NCBI GenBank assembly: GCA_004195035.1
Contig: SGBD01000003.1
Location: forward strand, 62,001 to 126,000
Source of the DNA: Candidatus Acidulodesulfobacterium ferriphilum
Lineage (GTDB): Bacteria; SZUA-79; Acidulodesulfobacterales; Acidulodesulfobacteraceae
Direction: 5' to 3'
Length of the DNA: 64,000 bases
The notes under the pieces are model-generated. The model ran no database searches, was not told the origin of the DNA, and saw only the letters and a list, made by a program, of their open reading frames with translations. Below, in pieces: positions 29,517 through 39,695 of the stretch; the first letter of the stretch is position 1; the number at the start of each line of letters is the position of its first letter. The position numbers and the translations under genes are program-made.

Positions 29517-29545
29517 TTGACAGTCTTTTTATAAATATATATACT
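29517..29545 (+). promoter_or_regulatory. Strong sigma-70 promoter of the kdp operon
   Basis: TTGACA at 29517-29522 and TATACT at 29540-29545 are exactly 17 bases apart. The predicted start near 29552 places the riboswitch and its terminator in a 5' leader of roughly 385 bases before kdpF. Confidence 0.8.
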
Positions 29546-29604
29546 GCATTAAAATGATGACTCGCGTGGATATATCCATATGGTCGTTCTTTGACAATTA
29601 AATG

Positions 29605-29735
29605 CCTAATCCCGCAATATTTGCGGGAGCGGAGGAACCGTTATTTTGGGGCCAATACTTTCTTAAAGAAAGCAAGGGATTACTCTTTATTCCTAGCCCG
29701 GCAGCTAACTTCGTAAGCTATTAAAGGGATTCAAA
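29605..29735 (+). promoter_or_regulatory. c-di-AMP riboswitch (ydaO/yuaA class) upstream of kdp
   Basis: The leader holds the conserved cores of the ydaO/yuaA aptamer in order: hairpin CCCGCAA/TTGCGGG (29611-29627), then GAGCGGAGGAACCG (from 29628), GGGGCCAAT, AAGGGATTACTC, and the long conserved block CCCGGCAGCTAAC-TTCGTAAGC (29697-29718). This class binds c-di-AMP and usually represses potassium uptake or osmoprotection genes. Here it precedes kdpFABC, a textbook target. An intrinsic terminator at 29843-29877 would serve as the expression platform, with c-di-AMP favouring termination. The exact 3' boundary is approximate. Confidence 0.9.
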
Positions 29736-29842
29736 TATATTAGTTTATATGTATTGCCGGCATTAATCGCCGTCGCAATTCATTCTTATCGTTATGTCGT
29801 TTTTTAGTAAATATTTTATTTAAATTTAGACAAAAACACTTT

Positions 29843-29877
29843 AATAGCCGGGGCAATTTCCTTCGGCTATTTTTTTT
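29843..29877 (+). terminator. Intrinsic terminator in the kdp leader (riboswitch platform)
   Basis: AATAGCCG (29843-29850) pairs with CGGCTATT (29864-29871), and the stem runs into a tract of T residues to 29877. It lies between the c-di-AMP aptamer and kdpF, so it probably controls read-through rather than ending an upstream gene. Confidence 0.85.
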
Positions 29878-29935
29878 GCAAATTTTTCCATGCTTTACAT
29901 GCTCTAAAATATAAAATTAAAATGAGGATTCTTTT

Positions 29936-30022
29936 ATGATCGAAAATACTATTCTTTTAATAATCTTGGCAATCGTGTTAGCGTATCTTTTTTATGTTCT
30001 TATTTATCCTGATAAATTTTAA
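29936..30022 (+). CDS. kdpF: K+-transporting ATPase subunit KdpF
   Basis: A 28-residue single-helix peptide, MIENTILLIILAIVLAYLFYVLI followed by YPDKF. The hydrophobic helix and the aromatic-acidic tail fit KdpF, the lipid-like stabilising subunit of the Kdp P-type ATPase. Its position ahead of kdpA supports this. It begins at the ATG 58 bases after the terminator T-tract. Confidence 0.85.
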   Translation: MIENTILLIILAIVLAYLFYVLIYPDKF

Positions 30023-30037
30023 TAGCGGAGGACATGT

Positions 30038-30124
30038 ATGCTTAGTTCACTGTTTGTTTTATTAGTTATCGGCATAATGTATGCCGTGTTATGGTTTTTG
30101 GTAGATTTTTTGGAAAAGATTTAA
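30038..30124 (+). CDS. Second 28-residue membrane peptide between kdpF and kdpA
   Basis: A single-helix peptide of 28 residues (MLSSLFVLLVIGIMYAVLWF and then LVDFLEKI) starts 15 bases after the kdpF stop. GGAGG at 30027-30031 sits 6 bases before the ATG, an excellent ribosome site. A second small gene between kdpF and kdpA is not part of the standard kdpFABC operon. It resembles KdpF only in size and in having one helix. It could be a KdpF duplicate or a separate regulatory micro-subunit. Confidence 0.65.
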   Translation: MLSSLFVLLVIGIMYAVLWFLVDFLEKI

Positions 30125-30166: not shown

Positions 30167-31888
30167 ATGACTGCTACGGGTATATTGCAAATTATTATCG
30201 TACTTTCGGCGATAATTTTGGCTGCCGTTCCTTTAAGTAAATATATGGCGCATATTTTTAACGGGGAAACAACCTTTTTAGATAAGATAATAAATCCAAT
30301 AGAAAATATTACATTTAAATTTCTTAAAGTAAATGAAAAAGAACAAATGGACTGGATAGGTTACCTAAAGGCAGGGCTGATTATCAATTTTTTTATGCTT
30401 GCAATTGTTTTTCTCGTACTAAGGTTTCAAAATTATCTTCCGTTTAACCAGATGCATTATAAAGGCATTACATGGCCGCTCGATTTTAATACTGCTATAA
30501 GCTTTATTACCAATACTAATTGGCAAAATTATGCAGGCGAAGAGACCCTGTCAAATTTTTCGCAGATGTCTTTAGTATTTTTACAGTTCACATCTGCCGC
30601 AACAGGGCTTGTTTTTTTAATAGCGTTTATAAGAGGATTAATAAGGACGCAGGCAAAAAATGTCGGCAATTTTTATATAGATTTTACAAAAACCGTCTAT
30701 AGAATTTTTATTCCCTTAGCCGTTATCTTTGCCATAGTTATGCTTTTTCTGGGTTCCCCCCAGACCTTTACGATGCAAAAGGGCGTGGTTAATATGACGG
30801 GGGCAAAGCAGTATCTTTCCATGGGTCCTGTCGCCTCGATGGTTTCCATCGAAAACCTCGGAACTAACGGAGGAGGTTTTTACAATGCAAACGCGGCACA
30901 GCCTTACGAAAATCCAAGCCCTTTTACTAACGCCCTGATAATATTTATGATGAGCGTTATTCCTGTGGCGATTTTTTTTATGTACGGGATAATGATAGGC
31001 AACAAAAAGCATGCCTTGACCCTGTTCCTTGTCGCTCTCACACTTTTGACGGTATGTATATTTGCCGTATATCATCAAGAAGCCGCCGGCAATCCTTTTA
31101 TGGCAAAATTAGGAGCCGACGTTAAAGTCTCAAAGTATAACCCGGGCGGAAATATGACAGGCAAAGAGGAACATATCGGCATTGCGCAAAGTTCCTTATT
31201 TGCATCGGCCACCACGGCATTTACCACCGGAAATGTGAACAGCGCTCATGACAGCTATATGCCGCTATCCGTTATGGTTCTTTTAGGCGAAATGATGTTA
31301 AATCTTATATTTGGAGGAAAAGGGGTCGGTTTATTAAATATGCTGACCATGGTTATTATCGGCGTATTCATTGCAGGCCTTATGGTTGGAAGAACGCCTG
31401 AGTTTCTGGGGAAAAAAATAGAGGCAAAAGAGGTTAAACTTGCAACTTTAGCTATGTTTGCCCATGCTTTTATAATAATAGTTCCTTTTGCCGTTGCCCT
31501 TTCGATTCCCGCAGGTTTAGCAGGAGCATTTAACCCTGGTCCGCATGGATTCAGCGAAATTTTATACGCCTTTACTTCTACGGTTGCAAACAACGGCTCG
31601 GCAATGGCCGGGTTTAGCGGAAACACGCTTTTTTACAATATAATTTTGGGTCTTACGATATTTTTTGGAAGATATGTCCCGATAATCTGCCAGGTGGCAA
31701 TAGCAGGTTCTTTAATTAAAAAGAAAAGCACTCCCGAATCTTTGGGAACATTTCCTGCCCATGGGCTGCTTTTTTATTCGGTTGTAATGGGGACAATAAT
31801 TTTAATCGGGGCATTAACATTTTTTCCGGCCCTTGCTTTAGGTCCTATTGCCGAGCATTTTGCGCTTATGGAAGGACATCTTTTTTAA
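30167..31888 (+). CDS. kdpA: Potassium-transporting ATPase subunit KdpA
   Basis: A 573-residue, ten-helix channel-like subunit of the KdpFABC complex that selects and binds K+ on the outside. It resembles the KtrB/Trk superfamily, with four pore-loop repeats. The best preserved selectivity-filter segment is NLGTNGGGFYNANAAQPYEN. Others are AATGLVFLIAFIRG, FTTGNVNSAHDSYMP and TSTVANNGSAMAGF. Length is close to the family norm. A GGAGAGGTG site precedes the ATG. kdpC follows by 34 bases, so the common order A-B-C is changed. Confidence 0.97.
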   Translation: MTATGILQIIIVLSAIILAAVPLSKYMAHIFNGETTFLDKIINPIENITFKFLKVNEKEQMDWIGYLKAGLIINFFMLAIVFLVLRFQNYLPFNQMHYKGITWPLDFNTAISFITNTNWQNYAGEETLSNFSQMSLVFLQFTSAATGLVFLIAFIRGLIRTQAKNVGNFYIDFTKTVYRIFIPLAVIFAIVMLFLGSPQTFTMQKGVVNMTGAKQYLSMGPVASMVSIENLGTNGGGFYNANAAQPYENPSPFTNALIIFMMSVIPVAIFFMYGIMIGNKKHALTLFLVALTLLTVCIFAVYHQEAAGNPFMAKLGADVKVSKYNPGGNMTGKEEHIGIAQSSLFASATTAFTTGNVNSAHDSYMPLSVMVLLGEMMLNLIFGGKGVGLLNMLTMVIIGVFIAGLMVGRTPEFLGKKIEAKEVKLATLAMFAHAFIIIVPFAVALSIPAGLAGAFNPGPHGFSEILYAFTSTVANNGSAMAGFSGNTLFYNIILGLTIFFGRYVPIICQVAIAGSLIKKKSTPESLGTFPAHGLLFYSVVMGTIILIGALTFFPALALGPIAEHFALMEGHLF

Positions 31889-31922
31889 TCTGCAATTTAA
31901 TTTTAATTTTTTGGGGCGACTT

Positions 31923-32561
31923 ATGTTAAACGATTTTTTGAAGTCGATAAAATTAGCTGTCTGGTTATTTATATTATGCTCCGTTGTGTACACATTTTTT
32001 ATATGGGGCATAGGGAAGATTTTTTTTCCGTTTCAGGCGGGGGGGAGTATAATCTATAAAAATTCTAAGCCTATAGGCTCTTTATTAATCGGCGAGAAAT
32101 TTAACTCGCCGTATCTATTTAATTCCAGACCGTCGAGCGCAGGCATAGGCTACCAGGCCGATGCGTCATCGGCTTCCAACTATGGACCGACGAATAAGGA
32201 TTATATCGATGCCGTCAAGAAAAGGATTAAAAGGTTCTTGTCGGAAAATCCAACCGTCAAAAAGGGCGAAATTCCAGTTGATTTAGTAACAGGTTCCGGT
32301 TCAGGGTTAGATCCGTTTATCTCCGTCCTTGGCGCCCTTACGCAGATTACAAGGATTTCGAAACTAACGGGAATTAATCGAAACAGGCTAAGGGAACTTG
32401 TAGAAAGCAATATATCTTATAGAGATTTCGGGATATTTGGAACGCCGGGAGTAAATACGGTAAAACTAAATTTAAAATTAGCTTCATTATTAAAAAGTGT
32501 TAACCCAAAGATTTACGATAAGGTTTTTAGAGGGCTTGTAAATACCGGAAATAAAAATTAG
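31923..32561 (+). CDS. kdpC: Potassium-transporting ATPase subunit KdpC
   Basis: A 212-residue KdpC with one N-terminal membrane helix (about residues 9-35) and a periplasmic domain. The motifs GSLLIGEKFNSPYLFNSRPS, SNYGPTNKDYIDAV and DLVTGSGSGLDPFIS match the family. The usual DPHIS histidine is phenylalanine here (DPFIS), a change in a well conserved spot. A longer open frame starts at 31848 inside kdpA, but ATG 31923 with GGGGCG a few bases upstream gives the normal N-terminus. KdpC stabilises the complex and is reported to raise ATP affinity of KdpB. It lies directly after kdpA, and kdpB follows 237 bases later beyond a MITE. Confidence 0.93.
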   Translation: MLNDFLKSIKLAVWLFILCSVVYTFFIWGIGKIFFPFQAGGSIIYKNSKPIGSLLIGEKFNSPYLFNSRPSSAGIGYQADASSASNYGPTNKDYIDAVKKRIKRFLSENPTVKKGEIPVDLVTGSGSGLDPFISVLGALTQITRISKLTGINRNRLRELVESNISYRDFGIFGTPGVNTVKLNLKLASLLKSVNPKIYDKVFRGLVNTGNKN

Positions 32562-32580
32562 TCAAAAATTAAAAATATAA

Positions 32581-32747
32581 CCTTAAATCACCGTTAGAAA
32601 TTTATCTTTCTGGATTCCCGCTTTCGCGGGAATGACTTTGCGAGTATTTGGCATTTAACCCAAAGGGTGTCCCAACCCGCTTCAGCGGGAATCCAGAATT
32701 TGCTATATGTTAAAGCAATTTTAATAGTTTCTAACGGTGATTTAAGG
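32581..32747. repeat. MITE-like element, copy 4, between kdpC and kdpB
   Basis: About 167 bp with perfect 20-bp inverted ends (CCTTAAATCACCGTTAGAAA). Two internal palindromes are present, ATTCCCGCTTTCGCGGGAAT and a degenerate CCCGCTTCAGCGGG. It has no coding capacity. It lies inside the kdp operon, where its folded RNA could affect read-through to kdpB. Confidence 0.88.
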
Positions 32748-32798
32748 TATGAATAATGTTAATTAATTAAATAAATAAAATAAAAGAGGTGTGTGAAT

Positions 32799-34850
32799 AT
32801 GCCAAAGCAAGATTATTATGTATCGGCATTTAACAAAGAAATATTGGTATCGGCTATATGGGAATCTTTTAGAAAGTTAAATCCTAAGGTTATGATTAAA
32901 AATCCGGTTATGTTCGTTGTCGAAATCGGGTCGGTTATAACTGCCGCCATTTTTTTAAAAGATGTTTTTTTCCATGATTTTAAAGATATAGCTTTTATAT
33001 TTCAGATAACTTTATGGCTCTGGTTTACGGTTTTATTTGCAAATTTTGCCGAAAGTATCTCTGAGGGCAGGGGTAAGGCTCAGGCGGAGAGTTTAAGGAA
33101 AAGTAAAACCGAGGTCATCGCAAGGTTAATTCATCAAACAAGCGGGAAAGAAGAAAAGATAAAAGCCTCATTGCTTAGAAAGGGCGATATTGTTGTTGCG
33201 GAGGCGGGCGATATTATACCTGCCGATGGAGAAATTATCGAAGGCATTGCTTCGGTTGACGAGTCTGTGATAACGGGTGAATCCGCGCCTGTTATAAGGG
33301 AAAGCGGCGGGGATAGAAGCGCGGTTACGGGGGGAACAAAGGTGCTTTCCGATAAAATATCGATTAAAATAACATCTAATCAGGGGGAGGGCTTTATCGA
33401 CAAGATGATAAGCTTGGTCGAAGGAGCTTCAAGGCAGAAAACCCCGAATGAGATTGCCCTGAACATACTGCTAGTCATGTTTACCGCCCTTTTTTTAGTC
33501 GTAGTTGCGGCTATAGAACCTATGGCTCACTATTTTAATGGAAATATCTCTCCCGTTATACTTGTTGCCCTTATCGTGTGCTTAATTCCGACAACAATCG
33601 GAGCGCTATTATCGGCAATAGGCATATCGGGTATGGACAGATTAGTTAAGCACAATGTTATAGCTATGTCAGGAGCATCGGTTGAGGCAGCGGGAGATGT
33701 AAATACACTTCTTTTGGATAAGACGGGAACTATCACATTCGGCAATAGAATGGCCGTTAATTTTATTCCGGCCAAAGATGTCAATATAAACGATTTAGCG
33801 GATTATTCCCAGCTCTCGTCGTTATCCGACGAAACCCCCGAAGGAAGGTCTATCGTTACTCTGGCAAAAAAATACGGGCTAAGAGGCAGGCATATCGATG
33901 AAAAAAATGTGAATTTTATTCCTTTTTCGGCATTAACGAGAATGAGCGGGGTAGATATATTAGATAAAAAAGAAAATATAAGAAAGGGCGCCGTTGATTC
34001 CGTTATAAGGTTTATTGAACAAAACGGCGGCGTCGCGGAAAAGTCTATTACCCTCGCGGCCAATAATATTTCCAAGCAGGGAGGGACGCCTCTTGCCGTT
34101 GCCGTAAACGACAAAATACTTGGAATAATACATTTAAAAGATGTAGTCAAGGGCGGGATTAAAGAAAGAATCGATAGTTTAAGAAAAATTGGCATAAAAA
34201 CGATAATGATAACGGGCGATAATGCTCTTACCGCAAAAGCCATAGCCGATGAGGCAGGTGTCGATGAGTTTGTTTCCGAAGCTACGCCCGAAACCAAGAT
34301 GGATATAATTAAAAAAGAGCAGGCATTGGGGAAGCTAATCGCTATGACAGGGGATGGAACCAACGACGCGCCGGCTTTAGCCCAGGCCGATGTCGGCGTC
34401 GCTATGAACACAGGCACTATGGCCGCAAAAGAGGCGGGAAATATGATAGATCTTGACTCAAACCCGACGAAACTTATAGAAATAGTCGAGACCGGAAAAC
34501 AGCTTCTTATAACAAGAGGTTCTTTAACGACATTTTCTATCGCAAACGATCTGGCGAAATACTTTGCTATAATACCTGCTATGTTTGCGCCTATAATGCC
34601 GTGGCTTGCCCCGTTAAACATAATGGGTTTGTCTTCGCCGCAATCCGCAATACTTTCGGCCGTTATATTCAATGCCGTTATAATAATAATATTAATACCG
34701 CTCGCCCTGAAGGGTGTGAAATACAGGCCTGCGGGGGCGTCTGCTATTCTAAGAAGAAACCTGTTGATTTACGGGCTTGGCGGAGTAATAGCCCCTTTTA
34801 TCGGCATTAAAATAATAGATATAATAATTACCTATTTACATTTCATTTAA
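32799..34850 (+). CDS. kdpB: Potassium-transporting ATPase ATP-binding subunit KdpB
   Basis: A 683-residue P1A-type ATPase, the catalytic subunit of KdpFABC. Visible motifs are the actuator [13 protein letters not shown], the phosphorylation site [13 protein letters not shown] with the phosphorylated aspartate, the nucleotide-domain [28 protein letters not shown] and the hinge [20 protein letters not shown]. The C-terminal helices ([20 protein letters not shown]) are KdpB-typical. AGAGGT at 32785-32790 fits the ATG at 32799 better than the GTG at 32793. It is placed after kdpC instead of between kdpA and kdpC, and separated from it by a MITE. Confidence 0.97.
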
Positions 34851-39054: not shown

Positions 39055-39600
39055 ACTGGCGGAGAGAGAGGGATGAGCGTCCAAGGACGCTAAAAGCGGC
39101 GAACCCTCTGACGCCCTTCGGGCTTACGGGTTCGAATCCAACTACCCTTAATTAAATATCCGACTTAGCTTATATAGCGTTTTAACTGGCGGAGAGAGAG
39201 GGATGAACTTTCCTTTGGAAAGTTTTAAGCCGTTCGAACTTCCTCTTGCGGGCTTCGCCCTTCGAGGGTTCGAATCCCCATTGCTTTACTTTATTTTCTT
39301 ATATTCCGTATATTGCGTTTTAACTGGCGGAGAGAGAGGGATGAACTTTCCTTTGGAAAGTTTTAAGCCGTTCGAACTTCCTCTTGCGGGCTTCGCCCTT
39401 CGAGGGTTCGAATCCCCATTGCTTTACTTTATTTTCTTATATTCCGTATATTGCGTTTTAACTGGCGGAGAGAGAGGGATGAACTTTCCTTTGGAAAGTT
39501 TTAAGCCGTTCGAACTTCCTCTTGCGGGCTTCGCCCTTCGAGGGTTCGAATCCCCATTGCTTTACTTTATTTTCTTATATTCCGTATATTGCGTTTTAAC
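39055..39600. repeat. 138-bp tandem array built on the 3' end of tRNA-Ser
   Basis: Units begin at 39055, 39185, 39323 and 39461, and the true tRNA starts the fifth at 39599. The last three intervals are exactly 138 bp and near-identical, and the first is 130 bp and diverged. Each unit starts ACTGGCGGAGAGAGAGGGAT, the complement of the tRNA-Ser 3' end including CCA. It then has a variable hairpin (AACTTTCC/GGAAAGTT, or GCGTCC/GGACGC in the first unit) and a T-arm-like GGGTTCGAATCC on the plus strand. The repeat length is a multiple of three, so one frame is open across it, but this is not taken as a gene. Confidence 0.9.
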
Positions 39601-39695
39601 TGGCGGAGAGAGAGGGATTCGAACCCTCGGTACATCTATTAGGATATACATTCGCTTAGCAGGCGAACGCCTTCGACCAGCTCGGCCATCTCTCC
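39601..39695 (-). tRNA. tRNA-Ser (anticodon GCT)
   Basis: A 95-base class II tRNA read leftwards: acceptor GGAGAGA/TCTCTCC with discriminator G and encoded CCA. The anticodon stem TTCGC/GCGAA encloses loop CTGCTAA (GCT at 34-36). It has a long variable arm and T arm GAGGG-TTCGAAT-CCCTC. Its 3' end is repeated in the tandem array directly downstream. Confidence 0.95.

What the first reader, a model, noticed from the sequence alone, without database searches (positions are those of the whole stretch)
29517..30022. c-di-AMP riboswitch with terminator controls a kdp operon
The leader shows the conserved ydaO/yuaA blocks (GAGCGGAGGAACCG and CCCGGCAGCTAAC-TTCGTAAGC) between a strong promoter and an intrinsic terminator. 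This class senses c-di-AMP and controls potassium and osmolyte genes, best known in Gram-positive bacteria. Finding it ahead of kdpFABC in a Gram-negative-looking genome links c-di-AMP to potassium uptake there and predicts a diadenylate cyclase elsewhere in the genome.
Basis: partly seen in the sequence, partly recalled or inferred. Interest (0 to 1): 0.75.

Follow-up and report, generated by a model that had tools for sequence, protein, structure and literature searches.

The report
Potassium-pump riboswitch with rRNA-type boxA
An uncultured acid-loving bacterium carries an RNA switch, of a kind known to sense the messenger c-di-AMP, in front of its high-affinity potassium pump genes; the same arrangement was reported only from Bacillus-type bacteria in the papers I could read, and here it also carries a signal otherwise seen in ribosomal RNA operons.

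Summary
Rfam's c-di-AMP aptamer model (RF00379) matches 29593-29734(+) at 78.4 bits (gathering 38, E 1.6e-16), between a TTGACA-17-TATACT promoter and an intrinsic terminator (29843-29871), ahead of kdpF-A-C-B and a short KdpD with no kinase part. Relatives place it in Candidatus Acidulodesulfobacteriota. The switch geometry is readable: GCUAUUAAAG at the aptamer's 3' edge pairs perfectly with the CUUUAAUAGC that starts the terminator. Both are invariant in 18 leaders of the family across linkers of 58-405 nt, predicting c-di-AMP-dependent shut-off. Riboswitch control of kdp is known in Bacillus (Wang 2019, who thought it restricted to Bacillales), so the kind is known. New here: the lineage; aptamers with about 165-200-nt peripheral stems that Rfam misses; and GUUCUUUGA[A/C]A, matching the phylum's rRNA-spacer boxA, in 17 of 17 complete leaders and nowhere else in a 304-kb sample of this genome. 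Ligand binding, termination and Nus-factor recruitment are untested.

The parts
29517..29545 (+). sigma-70-type promoter, TTGACA-17-TATACT
   Evidence: consensus scan; TTGACA/TTGACT-type promoters precede nearly all of the other leaders
29586..29599 (+). boxA-like element GUUCUUUGACAAUU
   Evidence: GUUCUUUGA invariant in 17 of 17 leaders; matches the rRNA 16S-23S spacer boxA of the phylum; only match in 304 kb of this genome
29593..29734 (+). c-di-AMP riboswitch aptamer (RF00379)
   Evidence: 78.4 bits, E 1.6e-16; covariation of its helices across 30 aptamers
29683..29689 (+). aptamer loop CUCUUUA, pseudoknot partner of 29722-29728
   Evidence: 6 of 7 pairs show changes on both sides across 30 aptamers
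29717..29726 (+). GCUAUUAAAG: 3' side of P1 plus tail; proposed 5' strand of the antiterminator
   Evidence: perfect 10-bp complement of 29839-29848
29839..29848 (+). CUUUAAUAGC: 5' flank and arm of the terminator; proposed 3' strand of the antiterminator
   Evidence: invariant in 18 of 18 leaders, including CUUU, which lies outside the terminator stem
29843..29871 (+). intrinsic terminator stem-loop, U run directly after
   Evidence: hairpin -12.8 kcal/mol
29936..30022 (+). kdpF
   Evidence: TIGR02115 E 7.6e-5, slightly below its cut-off; position and length fit
30038..30124 (+). 28-aa membrane mini-ORF between kdpF and kdpA, similar in relatives
   Evidence: translation and leaders of relatives; no family match
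30167..31888 (+). kdpA
   Evidence: PF03814 E 2.9e-211
31923..32561 (+). kdpC
   Evidence: PF02669 E 1.9e-59; start codon inferred
32793..34850 (+). kdpB
   Evidence: TIGR01497 1034 bits
35150..36310 (+). short KdpD: KdpD domain plus Usp-like domain, no histidine kinase
   Evidence: PF02702 E 1.3e-78, Usp weak; NF038185 KdpD_non_kinase E 2.4e-105 but below its cut-off; PDB 2r8r and, weakly, 7ji4

Best explanation
The leader is a c-di-AMP-sensing transcriptional OFF switch for the Kdp potassium pump. When c-di-AMP is high (potassium sufficient), the ligand stabilises the aptamer, holding GCUAUUAAAG in P1 and in the tail-loop pseudoknot; the terminator then forms and kdp is not transcribed. When c-di-AMP is low, GCUAUUAAAG is released and pairs with CUUUAAUAGC, the base of the terminator, so polymerase reads through into kdpF-A-C-B and the short KdpD. 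The short KdpD probably adds c-di-AMP control at the protein level. Shown: aptamer, promoter, terminator, genes, cyclase and the mutually exclusive pairings in sequence. Inferred: ligand binding, direction of switching, the role of KdpD.
For: RF00379 hit. Aptamer helices and pseudoknot supported by covariation over 30 aptamers, covariation score 0.386 against 0.210 shuffled and at most 0.200 when slid. Perfect 10-bp antiterminator; 0 of 2000 shuffles of tail and arm reach it. CUUUAAUAGCCG is invariant in 18 leaders although linkers vary from 58 to 405 nt; CUUU is outside the terminator stem. With the tail blocked, the terminator forms with probability 1.00 in all 18. All 18 aptamers found in the phylum lie upstream of kdp. 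One CdaA. No DUF4118 sensor domain of E. coli-type KdpD in any of 30 genomes. The same logic is shown experimentally in B. thuringiensis (PMC6488665).
Against: No experiment. Across the whole aptamer and platform, a 10-nt complement arises in 3.6% of shuffles, so the local test and conservation carry the argument. The antiterminator never varies, so there is no covariation for it. At equilibrium the model favours the terminator in many ligand-free leaders (antiterminator probability 0.01-0.54), so the switch must act during transcription. Three relatives have kdp without the riboswitch.
Confidence: 0.88

Rival explanations
1. The boxA-like element recruits NusB/S10 and other Nus factors to polymerase on the long untranslated leader, guarding it from Rho or aiding co-transcriptional folding, so the riboswitch works in a Nus-modified elongation complex. 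This adds to, and does not replace, the best explanation.
For: GUUCUUUGA invariant in 17 of 17 leaders with variable flanks and, in G018 and G025a, a different spacing to the aptamer (25-26 instead of 16-17 nt), so it is a separate element. Matches rRNA-spacer boxA GYUCUUUGAAAAUU. In 454 kb of family DNA all 29 matches are in riboswitch leaders or rRNA spacers; 1 match in 304 kb of this genome. No convincing match in riboswitch leaders of 24 loci of other lineages, none in riboswitch-less kdp loci.
Against: No Nus-binding data. Its UUCUUU could also pair with the aptamer tail AAAGAG, so it might be part of the switch. The leaders are related by descent.
Confidence: 0.55
2. The UUCUUU of the boxA-like element is instead a third competing partner for the aptamer tail (AAAGAG/AAAGGG), part of the folding switch and not a protein site.
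For: Six-pair complementarity with G-U pairs, read directly from the sequence; tail is AAAGAG or AAAGGG.
Against: Conservation extends past UUCUUU through GA[A/C]A, which is not needed for this pairing and matches rRNA boxA.
Confidence: 0.2
3. The aptamer is a degenerate relic and kdp is constitutive or controlled by an unidentified regulator.
For: Some relatives keep kdp without it.
Against: All core blocks, the pseudoknot, terminator and antiterminator are intact and conserved in three genera.
Confidence: 0.05

Closest known systems
c-di-AMP riboswitch of kdpFABC in Bacillus thuringiensis (Wang 2019, PMC6488665)
   Same: RF00379-type aptamer, intrinsic terminator, kdp operon, downstream truncated KdpD, no full KdpD found
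   Different: Lineage outside Bacillota; gene order F-A-C-B; boxA-like element; some relatives have very long peripheral stems. The paper stated that kdp control by this riboswitch seemed restricted to Bacillales.
Short KdpD as c-di-AMP-activated serine kinase of KdpB (PMC11018627)
   Same: Domain layout KdpD plus Usp, G-X5-GKT motif, Walker B DE and the TGES of KdpB are present in the window proteins; diadenylate cyclase present
   Different: Tested there with Deinococcus geothermalis KdpD, without a riboswitch; tyrosine stands where E. coli KdpD has W39 here; Usp match weak
boxA-regulated non-rRNA genes such as suhB (PMC5725501)
   Same: rRNA-type boxA near the 5' end of a protein-coding transcript
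   Different: No riboswitch there; in suhB boxA represses translation

Membership tests
c-di-AMP riboswitch (ydaO/yuaA, RF00379) | Covariance-model score above the curated gathering score over the full model | tested here: met
   78.4 vs 38 bits, model 1-134 of 134
c-di-AMP riboswitch (ydaO/yuaA, RF00379) | Core helices and long-range tail-loop pairing | tested here: met
   Helix and pseudoknot covariation over 30 aptamers
c-di-AMP riboswitch (ydaO/yuaA, RF00379) | Binds c-di-AMP | not testable with these tools
   Needs in-line probing or ITC
c-di-AMP riboswitch (ydaO/yuaA, RF00379) | Organism makes c-di-AMP | tested here: met
   CdaA gene found; activity not tested
kdp-controlling transcriptional riboswitch (B. 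thuringiensis type) | Aptamer and intrinsic terminator directly upstream of kdpF | tested here: met
kdp-controlling transcriptional riboswitch (B. [quoted passage not shown]
   Short KdpD present, DUF4118 absent in 30 genomes; KdpE and unrelated kinases were not searched
kdp-controlling transcriptional riboswitch (B. thuringiensis type) | c-di-AMP promotes termination | not testable with these tools
   Only structural logic shown
rRNA-type boxA | Matches the boxA of the same organism's rRNA operon | tested here: met
   GYUCUUUGAAAAUU in spacers, GUUCUUUGA[A/C]AAUU in most kdp leaders
rRNA-type boxA | Bound by NusB-S10 | not testable with these tools
   Needs binding assay

The most novel reading that the evidence does not exclude
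A riboswitch that works inside a Nus-factor-modified transcription complex: the kdp leaders of this phylum combine a c-di-AMP aptamer with an rRNA-type boxA, placing a second-messenger riboswitch, and with it potassium uptake in an acidophile, under ribosomal antitermination machinery.
Probability: 0.45. Interest if true: 0.65.

Novelty: new variant of a known kind. Interest (0 to 1): 0.5.

Why it matters
It extends c-di-AMP control of the Kdp pump beyond Bacillota, to acid-mine-drainage bacteria in which K+ uptake by kdp and kup has been proposed to deflect protons (PMC6776010). With the short KdpD, transcription and probably pump activity would both answer to one messenger. The boxA-riboswitch combination, for which I found no precedent in the papers searched, offers a direct test of whether Nus factors help a riboswitch decide.

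Tried and rejected
Whether the absence of Rfam hits in genus g2 means loss of the riboswitch: rejected; both aptamer halves are present with a long extra stem. Whether riboswitch-less relatives instead carry a two-component system in the operon: the ORF between kdpB and kdpD there resembles an outer-membrane porin (by eye, not searched) and no DUF4118 was found. An STnc240 hit at L070 was just the kdp terminator, below threshold. A family tree of KdpA+KdpB shows the riboswitch label needs two changes, with one origin plus losses not excluded. The two founding papers on this riboswitch class (10.1038/nchembio.1363, 10.1128/JB.00450-10) are not held, so kdp cases listed there could not be excluded.

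Full report
The observation. The window holds one c-di-AMP riboswitch aptamer, 29593-29734 on the + strand, full length, 78.4 bits, E 1.6e-16. A sigma-70-like promoter lies at 29517-29545 and an intrinsic terminator at 29843-29871 with its U run. kdpF, a 28-aa mini-ORF, kdpA, kdpC, kdpB and a short KdpD follow. The genome in which the window lies (1.87 Mb, 97.3% complete) has this single riboswitch.

The organism. The closest KdpB relatives with named records (84-88% identity) include Candidatus Acididesulfobacter diazotrophicus, and the genome's phylum has 30 genomes in one family in the set held. NCBI places that genus in Candidatus Acidulodesulfobacteriota. This is a lineage from acid mine drainage, formerly counted with Deltaproteobacteria (PMC6776010), where kdp and kup expression was read as a way to build an inside-positive potential against acid.

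The predicted cyclase. A single diadenylate cyclase is present. It matches CdaA (TIGR00159) and sits in the order folP-cdaA-ybbR-glmM (gene names other than cdaA from the translations, by eye). A cyclase is found in 27 of 30 genomes of the phylum and in all 19 that are at least 90% complete with little contamination.

How the switch is built. Across 30 aptamers from many lineages, the Rfam helices and a 7-bp pseudoknot between loop CUCUUUA (29683-29689) and tail UAAAGGG (29722-29728) show strong covariation; six of seven pseudoknot pairs have changes on both sides. The same tail, with the end of P1, reads GCUAUUAAAG (29717-29726), the exact complement of CUUUAAUAGC (29839-29848) at the foot of the terminator. 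The two structures compete for the same bases. Shuffling tail and arm never gave a 10-bp match in 2000 trials, though anywhere in the leader a 10-nt complement arises in 3.6% of shuffles. In 18 leaders from three genera the CUUUAAUAGCCG block is invariant, including CUUU which the terminator does not need, while the linker varies from 58 to 405 nt. With the tail made unavailable, as in the ligand-bound state, the terminator forms with probability 1.00 in every leader; with the tail free, partial or full antiterminator competes. This is an OFF switch, the same direction as shown in B. thuringiensis (PMC6488665).

Distribution. In the phylum, 16 of 30 genomes hold the pattern of the aptamer's 3' core, 18 places in all, and all lie upstream of kdp. 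Rfam finds only those of genera g1 and g6. Three relatives (G001, G007, G012) have kdp with no aptamer upstream. In the KdpA+KdpB tree the window's operon groups with G025a of another genus, not with its genus-mate G001, which suggests movement of the cassette within the family.

Outside the phylum, 40 further genomes in a sample of 386 have the riboswitch. Of 28 loci read, four have kdpA downstream; others precede genes that look like KimA-type, Kup or Trk potassium transporters (by eye).

A boxA in the leader. Between promoter and aptamer lies GUUCUUUGACAAUU (29586-29599). GUUCUUUGA is invariant in all 17 leaders that reach that far, with variable flanks and, in two, a different spacing to the aptamer. 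The 16S-23S spacer of the same phylum has G[C/U]UCUUUGAAAAUUG, a boxA. In 454 kb of family DNA all 29 matches are in riboswitch leaders or rRNA spacers (several loci overlap, so the places are fewer), and a 304-kb sample of this genome that excludes the rRNA operon has the kdp leader as its only match. Riboswitch leaders of other lineages show no convincing match. boxA elements in front of non-rRNA genes are known (PMC5725501); of six papers holding boxA, NusB and riboswitch, none by title or abstract describes the combination. That it recruits Nus factors is inference.

The protein layer. The short KdpD has the KdpD domain (PF02702), a weak Usp domain and no histidine kinase. In PMC11018627 such short forms act as serine kinases of KdpB that c-di-AMP stimulates. 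The G-X5-GKT and DE motifs and KdpB's TGES are present here (read from the sequence). NCBIfam's KdpD_non_kinase model matches but below its cut-off.

What is known and what is new. The riboswitch class, its use for potassium genes and its use for kdp are known; Wang et al. stated that the kdp case seemed restricted to Bacillales, and the 2024 paper also speaks of Bacillota. Two founding papers could not be read. New in the evidence here are the lineage, the long-stem aptamers missed by Rfam and the boxA-like element. I call it a new variant of a known kind.

Noticed in passing
39171-39618: Tandem repeat, unit 138 bp, 3.2 copies, 99% identical, abutting a tRNA gene on the - strand (39604-39695); the unit contains a T-arm-like GGGTTCGAATCCCC, so it may be a duplicated tRNA end.
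   Followed up: no
30038-30124: 28-aa single-helix mini-protein between kdpF and kdpA, with similar ones at the same place in relatives; no NCBIfam name.
   Followed up: partly
30167-34850: kdp gene order A-C-B in the window and all relatives examined, unlike the usual A-B-C.
   Followed up: partly
L066 3600-4020, L070 9119-9406: c-di-AMP aptamers with a peripheral stem of about 165-200 nt that Rfam does not detect even with relaxed thresholds.
   Followed up: yes
L065 9061-10467, L066 10648-12174, L067 8528-10051: A porin-like ORF lies between kdpB and the short kdpD in g1/g2/g5 relatives; absent from the window's operon.
   Followed up: no
window kdp locus versus G025:C3 and G001: The window's KdpA+KdpB groups with another genus (G025a) and not its genus-mate, suggesting transfer of the operon within the family.
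   Followed up: partly
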